Shown here in pieces: positions 1 to 55,244 of a stretch of 64,000 nt of DNA. A program made the translations under genes and the position numbers. The notes beneath the pieces were generated by a model, which did no database searches, was not told the DNA's origin, and saw only the letters and a list, made by a program, of their open reading frames with translations. Origin of the DNA: Psychroflexus maritimus (GTDB lineage Bacteria > Bacteroidota > Bacteroidia > Flavobacteriales > Flavobacteriaceae); assembly GCF_011089875.1 (NCBI RefSeq), contig NZ_JAANAS010000013.1, positions 1 to 64,000 on the forward strand. The letters are read 5' to 3'. How positions within the stretch are numbered: the first letter of the stretch is position 1; each line of letters opens with the position of its first letter.

Positions 1-29
1 AGGTACTATCTTTAAATCCAAACATTTTT

Positions 30-1271
30 TTAATTTTCAACCATAATTTTTTTATCTTTGATTTTACCGAGAGGAAGCATACTTTGATCACTCACTGGAT
101 GTTTACCTTGTATAGCCAAACTTTTTGTTTGGCTATTTTTTTCGCCTCTTTCAGAGGCGTACCGAGAGGAAAGCTCCTTCTCCTCCTCTTGGATATTTTT
201 ATTTCCTTTATTTTGATAATTAATATCAAAGGGTTCGTTTTTTTTCCACAAGTAATAAATTGTTAACAATAATTTTTTTTGAACAGCGACAATACCTTTC
301 ATTTTGATGCCTGTTCTTTCATAAACTCTAAGGTAAAGGTTCTTAAAAACTGTCCCTTCTGAACCTATTGCTATTAACGATGGCATGTGTAAAATTCGTC
401 TAATCCTTGAGTTTCCCTTTTTCGATATTTTTGTCTTGCCTTTATGAGAACCTGATTGATTTTCTACAACATCATACCCAGAATAACTCACTAGTTGCTT
501 GTAATTTTTAAACAGATTAAATCCATTTGTTTCTGCTATAACAGTAGCTACAGAAAGTATTGATAATCCTCTAACTGTGCAAATATTCTCTACTTTTAAT
601 TTTAGCTCCTCATCACTTTTTATGACTTCTTCGATAGCAATTTCTGTCTTTGTTTTTTGCTTTTCTAAGAAACGTATATGGCTTTTCATTTGCTTAATCA
701 CATGCTTGTTTGATAAAGCTGATTGTTCTTCTGCATGTAGCTTATTCTTTTCTACCGTAATCGATTCCTGAATGGATTGATACTGTCGTGTTAAAGACCT
801 TAGGCTTACAAAAACATCTTTAGGTCTAATCCATTGAGATAAATTTTGTTCTGCCCCCATTTGTGCCAAACCTTTAGCGTCTATTTTATCATTCTTACTT
901 TTTAAGCCAATAGATTGTAAATACTTTTTTGCTTTGTTTGGTAAAATAATAGAAACTCTATACCCTGCATCATCTAGATAATAAGCAAGTTCTTCGTGAT
1001 AAACACCAGTAGCTTCTAAGCTAACAACTATTGGAATAGACTCTTTTTTTGTCCATTTATCAATCCATTTTACTAGCTTTAAAAAGCCTGCTTTTGAATT
1101 AGAAACACTACAAGAAGACTTAACCTTCACGCTTTGATTACAGTCTATCGTGCTTATACAAGCATCTACTTTTTTACTTGACACATCAAGACCTACTGAA
1201 AATTTTAAATTCATAATAAAAGTATTTTTTGCGTAATAATCATTAAAATTTTTCTCTAAGACTTTGCTCAT
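30..1271 (-). CDS. IS110-family DEDD transposase/recombinase
   Basis: Transposase of the RNA-guided IS110 family, which cuts and joins DNA through an N-terminal RuvC-like domain and a C-terminal serine domain. From the ATG at 1271, the RuvC-like domain has D29 in GLDVS, E86 in LEATG, and D128/D131 in NDKIDAKG, giving the DEDD set. A coiled-coil linker follows at about 150-225. The C-terminal domain carries the SGSHKGK segment (S273/S275), where the family's nucleophilic serine is expected. The frame is intact, so the copy could be active. Starts at TTG 1280, ATG 1271 and ATG 1214 are all possible. The last gives a protein starting just before GLDVS, as is usual. The tail of about 60 residues after the Tnp domain is low in complexity and is encoded by hairpin-rich DNA. 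Confidence 0.88.
   Translation of the reverse strand: MSKVLEKNFNDYYAKNTFIMNLKFSVGLDVSSKKVDACISTIDCNQSVKVKSSCSVSNSKAGFLKLVKWIDKWTKKESIPIVVSLEATGVYHEELAYYLDDAGYRVSIILPNKAKKYLQSIGLKSKNDKIDAKGLAQMGAEQNLSQWIRPKDVFVSLRSLTRQYQSIQESITVEKNKLHAEEQSALSNKHVIKQMKSHIRFLEKQKTKTEIAIEEVIKSDEELKLKVENICTVRGLSILSVATVIAETNGFNLFKNYKQLVSYSGYDVVENQSGSHKGKTKISKKGNSRIRRILHMPSLIAIGSEGTVFKNLYLRVYERTGIKMKGIVAVQKKLLLTIYYLWKKNEPFDINYQNKGNKNIQEEEKELSSRYASERGEKNSQTKSLAIQGKHPVSDQSMLPLGKIKDKKIMVEN
112..142 (+). terminator. Terminator-like hairpin antisense to the transposase tail
   Basis: A perfect 10-bp stem (112-121 with 127-136, loop TTTTT) runs straight into seven T residues on the plus strand. That is the form of an intrinsic terminator. 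It lies inside the transposase coding region and reads against it, so it could stop outside transcription entering the element from the low-coordinate side. A second hairpin, CGCCTC-tttca-GAGGCG, follows at 152-168. Confidence 0.5.
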
Positions 1272-1440
1272 GTAATACAATATCTATAACTAAATTATAG
1301 TATTTAGGTACTATTGAATCTTTAAGAAAAAGACTAGGATAGATTTGCCTTTATCAGCATTATCAATCAATGATTGTAACTAGCCCGCAAACAATTTGCT
1401 ACCCTAGCTTTAATGATTTAACTGTTTAAAAATACAAAGA
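1215..1440 (-). ncRNA. Candidate bridge-RNA region of the IS110 element
   Basis: Members of the IS110 group encode a bispecific bridge RNA in the non-coding DNA upstream of the transposase. Here that interval holds two hairpins: 1364-1376 (CAATCA-a-TGATTG) and 1380-1407 (outer CTAG..CTAG, inner GCAAA-c-TTTGC type stem). The 9-mer AGGTACTAT at 1306-1314 matches the far side of the gene at 1-9. The role is inferred from the family and position. I could not identify guide loops without the insertion target. Confidence 0.3.
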
Positions 1441-1443
1441 TAT

Positions 1444-1567
1444 GAGCCCGTAAAGTCTGAGCTTAGTAAAACACAAGCCCCAAAGCGACCGGTAGGAAGC
1501 TCTTGGGGTGAAGATGTTTTGCTTAGTGAAGGCTGCGGACTTGTAATGAATAGCGGGTTCTTGGCTC
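1444..1567 (+). repeat. Structured dispersed repeat, copy A
   Basis: First of four copies of one element (others at 15942, 45890 and 54970). The outer stem pairs GAGCC at the left end with GGCTC at the right end across a bulge reading GTTCTTG. The central hairpin holds the invariant core GCGACCGGTAGGAAGCTC at 1485-1502, closed by CCCCAA/TTGGGG. It lies 38 bases before the paaE promoter and reads toward paaE. Because the paaE promoter lies after it, it is unlikely to be a paaE leader. It may be its own small RNA or a mobile palindromic repeat. The Rfam Flavo-1 motif is a possible match but not verified. Confidence 0.7.
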
Positions 1568-1604
1568 CTGAAATTTCTGCACCGTAAAGTTTAACAGCTT
1601 TTTT

Positions 1605-1635
1605 TTGATTGGTTAACTAACAATTGTTAGTTTTG
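1605..1635 (+). promoter_or_regulatory. paaE promoter with overlapping 18-bp palindromic operator
   Basis: A TTG at 1605-1607 and a perfect TAGTTTTG (TAnnTTTG) at 1628-1635 lie 23 bases apart start to start, the expected flavobacterial spacing. The perfect palindrome AACTAACAATTGTTAGTT at 1615-1632 fills the spacer and covers most of the -7 box. A dimeric repressor bound there would block transcription. TetR-type regulators of phenylacetate or acyl-CoA genes (PaaR-like) use sites of this kind. The regulator itself is not in the window. Confidence 0.65.
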
Positions 1636-6888: not shown

Positions 6889-7440
6889 AAACTAGGGACT
6901 TTAGTGCATCTCGGTTTAGCTTCTAAAAACACTTACCTTTGTTATATGAATAATCAATGGGTAAATGGATATATTGTTTCGAGATTAACAGTGCACTTGG
7001 TTTGGAGCACCAAGTATTGCTATTCAGTTTTAAATGGAGATATTTAGAAGTGTTGACGTGAGATTCTGATTCAATTTTGTGATGCCGAAAGTATTAGTAT
7101 ATTAAAGGCAGTTGTTAATAAAGATCATATTCACATGCATGTAGAGTATCGCCCCTCGCAAGACATCAGCACTTTAGTAAAAAAGCTAAAAGGCAGAAGC
7201 TCAAGAAAACTCCAACAAAAGTTTCCAAAATTACAAAAGCGCTATTGGGGCAGCTATTTTTGGGCAATAGGTTTGGGATGTTAGAGTACGGGCAACATAA
7301 CTGATGAAATGGTAAGTGAATACTTGGAGCATCATCGGAAATCAGGTAATGACTCAGATAATTTTATACTTGAGTAATCACGTACAGCTGAATTTCAGTC
7401 AGGATAAAACCTATGGACTTCAAGTCCAAAGTGGTTTAGT
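6889..7440 (+). mobile_element. Decayed IS200/IS605-type element (tnpA only)
   Basis: The tnpA pseudogene is followed by CTATGGACTTcAAGTCCaaAGtGG (7409-7432), a subterminal hairpin of the kind that marks the right end of IS200-like elements. On the left, CTAGGGACTTTAG (6892-6904) with GGTTTAGC nearby looks like an eroded left hairpin. These single-strand transposons have no inverted terminal repeats and make no target duplication, so borders are approximate. Confidence 0.6.
6946..7377 (+). pseudogene. tnpA: IS200-family transposase TnpA, inactivated by three stop codons
   Basis: A single open frame of 143 codons from ATG 6946 to TAA 7375-7377, interrupted by TAG at codon 34 (7045), TGA at codon 37 (7054) and TAG at codon 113 (7282). 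The text reads VHLVWSTKYCYSVLNGDI, then the HUH-type HIHMHVEYRP, LVKKLKGRSSRKLQQ, YWG.YFWA, and STGNITDEMVSEYLEHH, a clear Y1 transposase. There are no frameshifts. All three stops fit single C:G to T:A changes (CAG, CGA and TGG before), so decay is recent and by point mutation only. Confidence 0.85.
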
Positions 7441-15941: not shown

Positions 15942-16081
15942 AGCCCCGGTAGTAGCGGTTATCTTTTTGTTTTTGTACTTAGCCAGAAACGAGTAAAAAA
16001 GCGACCTTAGAAGCTCTTTTTATGAAGATTGATGGCTAGTAATAAACACAAAAAATAAAAGCGAATAACGGGTTCTTGGCT
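15942..16081 (+). repeat. Structured dispersed repeat, copy B
   Basis: Second copy of the four-copy element. The outer stem is AGCCCCG with CGGG-TTCTTG-GGCT. The core GCGACCTTAGAAGCTC (16001-16015 region) is closed by TAAAAA/TTTTTA instead of CCCCAA/TTGGGG, so both arms changed together. An extra stem TAGCCA/TGGCTA (15980-15985 with 16033-16038) frames the core. It points toward pdxH, whose -7 box begins 68 bases downstream. Confidence 0.7.
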
Positions 16082-45889: not shown

Positions 45890-46032
45890 AGTCCTGATTG
45901 CAATGAAAGCCCAGAGTGAATCAGGCTTAATTTTACTTGTTTTAGCAAAGCGACCGGCAGGAAGCTCTTGATAAAAGCTAGAAAAATTTGCCAGATAAAT
46001 GAGGACTTGAAATGGAAAGCAGGTCCCTGACT
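45890..46032 (+). repeat. Structured dispersed repeat, copy C
   Basis: Third copy. The outer stem is AGT-CCTG with CAGG-TCCCTG-ACT. Copies A, B and D have AGC/GCT at the same place, so both strands of the pair changed. The core GCGACCGGCAGGAAGCTC (45950-45967) is closed by AA/TT and TTTTA/TAAAA. It lies between the outer-membrane protein gene and the carboxylase operon, reading toward the latter. Confidence 0.75.
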
Positions 46033-54697: not shown

Positions 54698-54764
54698 CTT
54701 ATACTATTTTTGTTGTTGATTAAGCTTGTGGTATTTTGTAATATCAATATAATCACTAAATATC

Positions 54765-54838
54765 CGCTATCTAGCTGATTCATTTTCTCCTCTATTTCCT
54801 TGTTCAAAATTTTTGTCCTCTGCGTAGGGATGCAAATT
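54765..54838 (-). repeat. 74-nt dispersed repeat, copy 2
   Basis: Inverted partner of 50653-50726. The minus strand starts AATTTGCATCCC and ends AGCTAGATAGCG. Its palindromic left arm is eroded (TACGCAGAGGAC). It lies between the trxB terminator and structured repeat copy D. Confidence 0.7.
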
Positions 54839-54969
54839 AATTAGCACCTTGTCTAGGAAAAAATTGATTTTGCTTTACTAGGGGTGTTCAAAAATCAAAT
54901 AAGTATAATTTGAAACCTAAGTTTAATTATAGTGTTAACTCTTATGCTTCATGGCTGATTATGAAAAAT

Positions 54970-55113
54970 AGCCCTGATTGTAGTGGAAAACCCGGAATTG
55001 AGAAAGCTTAATTTTACTTACTTTAACAAAGCGACCGGCAGGAAGCTCTTGATTAAAGTTAGAAAAATTTGCTTGCTTAATGAGGATTTGAAGAGAAAAG
55101 CAGGTTCTTGGCT
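54970..55113 (+). repeat. Structured dispersed repeat, copy D
   Basis: Fourth copy, the closest relative of copy C over its whole length. The outer stem is AGC-CCTG with CAGG-TTCTTG-GCT. The core GCGACCGGCAGGAAGCTC (55031-55048) is closed by CTTTAA/TTAAAG. It reads toward the CPBP gene 132 bases downstream. The remaining bases of this 600-base spacer show only the trxB terminator and the 74-nt repeat. Confidence 0.75.
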
Positions 55114-55244
55114 TCAATAAATTAAAGGTATAATTTTTATAGATTTCTGTAACTTTTTATCCTAAAAACTAATTTGTTACTTATTAGATAAAATATTTTG
55201 AATATACAGGATTTTATATAGTATTGCATTTATTAAATATTAAG

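What the first reader, a model, noticed from the sequence alone, without database searches (positions are those of the whole stretch)
1444..1567. Four-copy structured element with covarying stems (copy A and family overview)
Copies at 1444-1567, 15942-16081, 45890-46032 and 54970-55113 share an invariant hairpin core GCGACC..GGAAGCTC and an outer stem AGY-CC(C/T)G with C(A/G)GG-bulge-RCT. The stems closing the core differ but stay paired: CCCCAA/TTGGGG, TAAAAA/TTTTTA, TTTTA/TAAAA, CTTTAA/TTAAAG. One copy has AGT/ACT where the others have AGC/GCT. Such paired changes indicate selection on RNA or single-stranded DNA structure. All copies have the same orientation and lie 93-173 bases before a plus-strand gene. 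In copies A and B the gene's own promoter lies after the element, so a leader riboswitch is unlikely.
Basis: partly seen in the sequence, partly recalled or inferred. Interest (0 to 1): 0.75.

Follow-up and report, generated by a model that had tools for sequence, protein, structure and literature searches.

The report
Flavo-1-like hairpin family targeted by IS110
The four repeats belong to a dispersed family of long, structure-conserved hairpins related to the Flavo-1 motif of flavobacteria, and one of them has been split by a jumping gene whose predicted guide RNA matches this very family.

Summary
The copies belong to a dispersed ~145-nt hairpin family that shares its base with Rfam Flavo-1 (RF01705) but has a longer arm: about 25 copies in the genome, and found in 21 of 24 same-genus relatives. 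On 103 copies from 21 other genomes, 88.5% of cells pair and 43 of 45 pairs show changes on both sides. G-U outnumbers A-C on the plus strand, even under a reverse-strand model, so one strand (RNA or single-stranded DNA) is what selection keeps.

Copy A was misread. Window 1-1446 is an IS110-family insertion sequence; copy A is only the right part of an element split by it. All 12 IS copies, each seen from one side, abut such arms. Unsplit right-flank orthologues exist in four relatives. The IS non-coding region carries guide-like matches to the target and to its own ends, as in IS621.

It is not a leader riboswitch: promoter-like boxes lie after it, and its 3' end often hugs the stop codon of a convergent gene (34 of 113 copies within 20 nt; 5' end 3). 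Its own function is inferred; a one-sided transcription boundary is my best guess.

The parts
1..1446 (-). IS110-family insertion sequence including the AG core dinucleotides at both ends (body about 3-1444)
   Evidence: DNA 100% identical over 1450-1456 bp at 6 other contig ends; transposase 100% identical at 12 places in the own genome; ends inspected
30..1280 (-). IS110-family transposase (DEDD_Tnp_IS110 + Transposase_20); the first ATG would start it at about 1271
   Evidence: Pfam 3.5e-24 and 8.6e-18; PDB ISCro4 9t56 4.4e-32, IS621 8wt6 3.3e-28
1281..1444 (-). Non-coding region; candidate bridge RNA
   Evidence: Folds with a long closing stem around the target guides; holds guide matches to target and donor. 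RNA not observed
1382..1391 (-). Candidate left target guide UUUGCGGGCU, matches target TTTACGGGCT with one rG:dT wobble
   Evidence: target
1349..1352 (-). Candidate right target guide AAAG, pairs with target CTTT
   Evidence: only 4 nt, weak on its own
1306..1314 (-). Candidate left donor guide AUAGUACCU, matches the IS own end
   Evidence: 9 of 9 (wobbles allowed in the control), weak on its own
1445..1568 (+). Copy A: right part of a long Flavo-1-like element split by the IS at GAAA-AG-CCCG
   Evidence: right junction; unsplit right-flank orthologues in four other genomes; R2 51.8 bits
15941..16083 (+). Copy B, intact; above the Rfam Flavo-1 cut-off
   Evidence: RF01705 47.1 bits, cut-off 42; R2 58.9 bits
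45889..46034 (+). Copy C, intact
   Evidence: R2 136.6 bits (copy was used to build R2); RF01705 26.3 bits, below cut-off
54969..55115 (+). Copy D, intact
   Evidence: R2 151.5 bits (copy was used to build R2); RF01705 27.1 bits, below cut-off

Best explanation
The repeats are a long form of the Flavo-1 type of structured element: one imperfect hairpin of about 145 nt. Its stems drift in sequence but stay paired. The base is shared with Rfam Flavo-1, and the tip is a conserved GCGAC/GGAAGC module (shown). The selected form is the plus strand as a single strand, RNA or single-stranded DNA (shown statistically). In this genome an IS110-family element uses the elements as landing sites. A bridge RNA read from its non-coding region would pair with the arm sequence GAAA-AG-CCCGTAAA and with the IS own ends, and the recombinase would join them at the AG/CT core (insertion sites and guide matches shown; RNA and reaction inferred from IS621). 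The element's own job is inferred: it most likely acts in nascent plus-strand RNA as a one-sided boundary, keeping transcription from the 5' side out of the unit at its 3' end. That unit is either the tail of a convergent gene or the promoter of the next gene. My separate odds: structure 0.97, kinship with Flavo-1 0.85, IS110 targeting 0.9, boundary role 0.3.
For: Structure: 103 copies from 21 genomes not used in the model give 88.5% paired cells (shuffled 60.8, slid 38-49), 43 of 45 pairs with double changes (shuffled 35.7) and covariation 0.653 (shuffled 0.181, slid at most 0.120). Ortholog pairs at the same place show 30 double compensatory, 16 one-sided and 47 broken cells, 294 unchanged (first pair of each of 9 groups; no null computed). 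Strand: G-U 173 against A-C 57 on the plus strand; with a model of the reverse strand still 148 against 90; 138 against 49 in cells common to both; 63 of 103 copies have more G-U, 11 fewer, 29 ties. IS110: all 12 visible junctions in the own genome, and one in a Psychroflexus MAG, lie in such arms, read by eye. Model R2 finds element bodies beside 7 of these 13 and beside 0 of 32 other IS110 loci of relatives. Unsplit orthologues exist for copy A (4 genomes, right flank) and for three other insertions. Guide matches to target and donor together: 3 of 20000 random sequences. Boundary: stop codon within 20 nt of the 3' end in 34, of the 5' end in 3, of 113 copies; promoter-like boxes lie after the element.
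Against: No T-run follows the hairpin on either strand, so it is no ordinary intrinsic terminator, and I name no termination factor. In 50 of 113 copies the 5' neighbour is transcribed away from the element, so no obvious transcript enters from the 5' side; 16 of the 34 copies that hug a stop codon are of this kind. Canonical Flavo-1 shows the stop-codon bias less: 16 against 7 within 20 nt (p 0.09), 30 against 10 within 60 nt (p 0.002). The 13 own-genome copies alone do not show it significantly (3 against 1). In Flavobacterium psychrophilum many Flavo-1 hits were not in transcribed regions (PMC9723704, passages). The A3 alignment was fitted to the structure, its copies were picked by a model made from own copies, and cells of related copies are not independent. 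The donor-guide match alone is not rare (922 of 20000); no right donor guide was settled. No insertion was seen with both flanks in one contig. A looser arm scan (2 mismatches) is not clean: 14 of 15 own-IS loci, but also 7 of 32 other IS110 loci (3 of 32 when shuffled); three of the 7 share one match at the same distance in the locus, probably inside the transposase gene.
Confidence: 0.6

Rival explanations
1. REP- or ERIC-like mobile DNA repeat without host function: copies spread once, and the IS110 element merely uses them as harmless landing sites.
For: Many dispersed copies in both orientations; target of an IS110 element as REP repeats are (PMC1525189, passages); other repeats also cut the copies.
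Against: Copies at orthologous places persist between species with flanks 69-97% identical and show double changes that keep pairs, though the loci compared were chosen because they carry the element, so absences could not show; Y1 transposase genes are absent (E<=1e-5) from genomes rich in Flavo-1 such as G029, G031, G043, G049.
Confidence: 0.25
2. Independent small RNA gene with its own promoter.
For: Plus-strand G-U preference; more free space on the 5' side than on the 3' side; Rfam lists Flavo-1 as an sRNA.
Against: No promoter enrichment within 120 nt upstream (11 forward, 14 reverse of 112); in four of the five ortholog groups aligned the upstream sequence looks less conserved than the element and its 3' side (by eye).
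Confidence: 0.15
3. 3'-end hairpin or terminator of the convergent gene, acting in that gene's RNA.
For: The 3' end hugs the stop codon of an opposite-strand gene in 34 of 113 copies.
Against: That RNA would be the minus strand, yet the G-U preference is on the plus strand even in the copies with a stop within 30 nt (53 against 21); no T-run; 44 of 113 copies face a start instead.
Confidence: 0.12
4. Folded single-stranded DNA site for a recombinase, comparable to integron attC sites.
For: Structure kept while sequence drifts; the folded strand is the bottom strand of the adjoining gene in many copies.
Against: The ends do not fit the attC box sequences (recalled, compared by eye); no integron integrase was searched for; positions shared between species speak for stability.
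Confidence: 0.1

Closest known systems
Flavo-1 RNA motif (Rfam RF01705)
   Same: Basal arms UAGCCC-GAU..GCGGAAA / CGGAAAGC-GGG align to the Rfam structure; copy B passes the cut-off.
   Different: Rfam model is 76 positions with a simple tip; here a ~90-nt arm with a GCGAC/GGAAGC tip. 0 of 20 relatives' loci sampled (of 99) reach the cut-off, and 0 of 17 own loci with the exact core.
IS621 and other IS110 elements with bridge RNA that insert in REP repeats
   Same: Transposase homology, long non-coding region before the transposase, CT core, order left target guide - stem-loop - right target guide, insertion in a dispersed structured repeat (PMC11208160, PMC11208158 and PMC1525189, passages).
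   Different: Target is a Flavo-1-like element, not a REP; 36-41% identity to the nearest other transposases in 80 genomes; RNA not observed.
REP/BIME and ERIC repeats (ERIC recalled)
   Same: Dispersed intergenic imperfect palindromes; REPs are targeted by insertion sequences.
   Different: Longer, strand-polar, with strong compensatory change; abundant in genomes without a Y1 transposase hit.

Membership tests
Flavo-1 (RF01705) | Score at or above the gathering cut-off of 42 bits | tested here: not met
   Copy B 47.1 meets it; C 26.3, D 27.1, L013 41.0, L020 38.2 do not; copy A no hit at E<=1; 0 of 17 own core loci; 0 of 20 sampled relatives' loci. Met by one window copy of four.
Flavo-1 (RF01705) | Basal stem with 3x3 purine-rich internal loops | tested here: met
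   Alignment of B, L013, L020, D to the Rfam structure; pairs 5-27 with 273-295 in A3, 92-97% of cells paired
Flavo-1 (RF01705) | Distribution in Bacteroidetes | tested here: met
   RF01705 in 51 of 80 genomes (own and relatives) at E<=0.01, 0 of 14 controls; long form in 24 of 40
IS110-family insertion sequence | DEDD domain plus Transposase_20 domain | tested here: met
IS110-family insertion sequence | Core dinucleotide shared by target and both IS ends | tested here: met
   AG (CT on transposase strand) at both ends; unsplit sites such as GAAAAGCCCG
IS110-family insertion sequence | Bridge RNA with target and donor guides | tested here: inconclusive
   Left target guide 10 of 10 with wobble, left donor guide 9 of 9, joint chance 3 of 20000; right donor guide not settled; RNA not observed
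REP element mobilised by RAYT (Y1) transposase | Y1 transposase present where the repeats abound | tested here: not met
   G029 23 Flavo-1 matches, G043 19, G031 14, G049 14, each with 0 Y1 hits at E<=1e-5
Leader riboswitch | Element lies between promoter and start codon | tested here: not met
   TANNTTTG within 120 nt after the element in 26, before it in 11 of 112; a consensus match only
Intrinsic terminator | Hairpin followed by a T-run | tested here: not met
   3' side A-rich, not T-rich; 5' side not A-rich

The most novel reading that the evidence does not exclude
A strand-polar RNA boundary element, dispersed through a genus and kept by compensatory change at each place, shields gene tails and promoters from incoming transcription; and an RNA-guided transposon has tuned its bridge RNA to this element as its landing site.
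Probability: 0.3. Interest if true: 0.8.

Novelty: new variant of a known kind. Interest (0 to 1): 0.6.

Why it matters
Flavo-1 was listed as a computed motif in 2010 (PMC2864571, one passage) and a 2021 transcriptome study still found no clue to its function (PMC9723704, passages). Here it gains a long variant, a polarity (which strand, which side faces genes) and a natural partner. The IS110 element offers a natural bridge-RNA target outside REP repeats, with occupied and unsplit sites to test. Genome readers should also know that split copies can look like full ones.

Tried and rejected
Rfam search of copy A alone: nothing at E<=1. RNAalifold on a plain sequence alignment found only 5 pairs at the tip, so model R1 is mostly a sequence model; a structure-guided model R2 replaced it. 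RAYT (Y1) mobilisation: not supported. Other IS110 elements: 28 loci handed out, of 48 matches outside the own genome, plus 4. A first strict motif scan found no arm apart from one palindrome in L280, but it also missed an own locus that does have an arm (L294), so I repeated it: with 2 mismatches it finds 14 of 15 own-IS loci and 7 of 32 others (3 of 32 shuffled); with 3 mismatches it does not discriminate (15 of 15, 24 of 32, 21 of 32 shuffled). Model R2 finds 0 of 32 others and 7 of 13 own-IS loci, missing those where only one arm is visible. So that other IS110 elements avoid the element is likely, not proven. Intact target motif AAAGCCCGYAA: 2 in the own genome, 1 for the reversed control, so no excess remains. 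Empty sites without the element for copies C and D: neighbouring genes are not together in relatives, so no test. Own small-RNA promoter: no enrichment. Phages: no match for copy D. Plasmids: 10 records with distant IS110 relatives, below 60% identity. Literature: searches for Flavo-1, IS110 with bridge RNA, target site, REP, Flavobacterium with REP terms, IS110 with Flavobacterium and insertion site, Psychroflexus with repeat and insertion sequence, IS110 with bridge RNA, Bacteroidota, repeat element: no listed title or abstract start tells of an IS in Flavo-1. I read listings and passages only, and the library lacks most subscription journals.

Rows dropped: L052 and L053 before the context count, 5 of 145 copies overlapping an ORF, then 10 own copies with foreign ends and 17 further copies of orthologous sets, leaving 113. 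The unpruned result (44 against 3 of 140) agrees. For canonical Flavo-1, 88 loci were used; L078, L083 and L085 were left out as too near a contig end, and 3 of 88 overlapped an ORF. Gene calls come from a simple ORF rule, not a gene finder. Genome searches scored only the first candidates (e.g. 78 per genome, 51), so copy numbers are lower bounds.

Full report
What is there. The four copies exist. Copy B matches Rfam Flavo-1 above the cut-off (47.1 bits against 42). Copies C and D fall below it (26.3 and 27.1), and copy A gives nothing at E<=1. The exact core occurs 17 times in the own genome against 0 for the reversed control, and a covariance model gives 25 matches at E<=0.1. The long form is found at E<=1e-4 in 21 of 24 same-genus relatives and in 2 of 15 genomes of other families of the order. 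Rfam Flavo-1 itself is found at E<=0.01 in 51 of 80 genomes including the own, and in 0 of 14 controls. These searches scored a capped number of candidates per genome, so they are lower bounds. The genus is probably Psychroflexus: the only named hit of the IS protein, 100% over 28 residues, is a Psychroflexus MAG. That rests on one record.

Copy A. Window 1-1446 is an insertion sequence of the IS110 family. Its transposase is found unchanged at 12 places, all at contig ends. Each place shows one flank: 5 left and 7 right. All 12 read, by eye, as arms of these elements: 4 left and 6 right junctions in the 5' arm, 1 left (L069) and 1 right (L065) in the 3' arm. The number of separate insertions is therefore 7 to 12. 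A further left junction in the Psychroflexus MAG is also in a 5' arm. The site reads GAAA-AG-CCCG, with AG kept at both ends of the IS. On the right flank copy A has unsplit orthologues in G015, G012, G009 and G013 (1264-1305 nt aligned at 72-79% identity). The insertions on contigs C43 and C71 have them in G015 (83% over 1382 nt) and G002 (84% over 1340 nt), and that on C82, the one in a 3' arm, in G015 (two shorter stretches, 92% and 84%). The sites in G009 (copy A), G002 (C71) and G015 (C82) each have one mismatch to AGCCCG. Two AAAGCCCGYAA sites remain elsewhere in the own genome, one in such an element and one not, against one for the reversed pattern.

Specificity control. Of 32 other IS110 loci from relatives, model R2 finds an element body in none, against 7 of 13 loci of this IS. 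A looser arm scan is noisier: 14 of 15 loci of this IS, 7 of 32 others, 3 of 32 shuffled. R2 misses loci where only a left arm is visible, so the control is good but not complete.

Guide RNA. The non-coding region next to the transposase, read on its strand, folds with a closing stem. It contains UUUGCGGGCU, a stem-loop, then AAAG, and further on AUAGUACCU. The first matches the target with one G:T wobble, the second the other target side, the third the IS end. The order is that of IS621 (PMC11208158, passages). Against random sequences with the same neighbour frequencies the target match alone occurs in 42, the donor match in 922, and both in 3 of 20000. That the RNA is made is not shown.

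Structure. A model of the long hairpin was built from 7 own copies and used on 99 stretches from 21 other genomes, chosen because R1 had matched there, giving 103 matches. On these, 88.5% of 4504 cells pair; 43 of 45 pairs have double changes; 1368 cells are double-changed against 447 shuffled and 212-277 slid. The alignment leans to the structure because it was fitted. At orthologous places double compensatory changes occur too (30 double, 16 one-sided, 47 broken). G-U exceeds A-C on the plus strand under both a plus-strand and a minus-strand model and in copies of every gene context examined. This says the plus strand folds; it does not separate RNA from single-stranded DNA.

Position. Among 113 pruned copies a stop codon lies within 20 nt of the 3' end in 34 and of the 5' end in 3. 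Where a start faces the 3' end (44 copies) the median distance is 95 nt. Promoter-like boxes lie downstream (26 forward, 5 reverse of 112) more than upstream (11 and 14). In four of the five ortholog groups aligned (the exception being L220/L226/L234) the sequence directly upstream of the element looks less conserved than the element and its 3' side (by eye). For canonical Flavo-1, 85 usable loci give a different picture: mostly between genes of one direction, 44 with the element opposed to them and 22 along them (p 0.009). Its stop-codon bias is weaker (16 against 7 within 20 nt, p 0.09; 30 against 10 within 60 nt, p 0.002). So the long form's rule extends to the family at most in part.

Reading. 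The structural and targeting statements are well supported in silico. The boundary role is a proposal: it explains polarity and placement without needing an own promoter. But it lacks a termination mechanism, almost half of the copies (50 of 113) have no gene pointing at them from the 5' side, and the published transcript map of a related species gave no clear sense for Flavo-1 (PMC9723704, passages).

Noticed in passing
window 54739-54911: A second interspersed repeat upstream of copy D, with further copies in the own genome (C36, C38, C47, C82) and in relatives.
   Followed up: no
L006, L014, L015, L171: Another repeat (ATACCATTTATCAATTGAAATTACCG...) truncates or joins Flavo-1-like copies, once at the same place in two species.
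   Followed up: partly
L018 1501-1587 (G000:C11:4843-4929): A canonical short Flavo-1 ends about 27 nt before the tmRNA match.
   Followed up: no
window 6976-7332: Y1 transposase (PF01797) remnant with stop codons.
   Followed up: partly
window 1615-1632: Perfect palindrome AACTAACAATTGTTAGTT before the gene at 1663, largely kept in L180, L194 and L207: possibly an operator.
   Followed up: partly
L161, L155, L152, L229 and others, 3' ends: A second small hairpin sits between the main hairpin and the closing AACGCC in several copies with GCGTTA ends (by eye).
   Followed up: no
L234 5' arm: A short palindromic insert in the 5' arm of the element that orthologues L220 and L226 lack.
   Followed up: no
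first 9 nt after the 3' end, 112 copies: A-rich stretch, 44-62% A per position; unexplained.
   Followed up: partly
L281, L283, L300 at about 2342: Three other IS110 loci share a near match to the 5' arm (TAGCGCTGATTGCAGTG type) at the same distance in the locus, probably coding sequence; not checked further.
   Followed up: no
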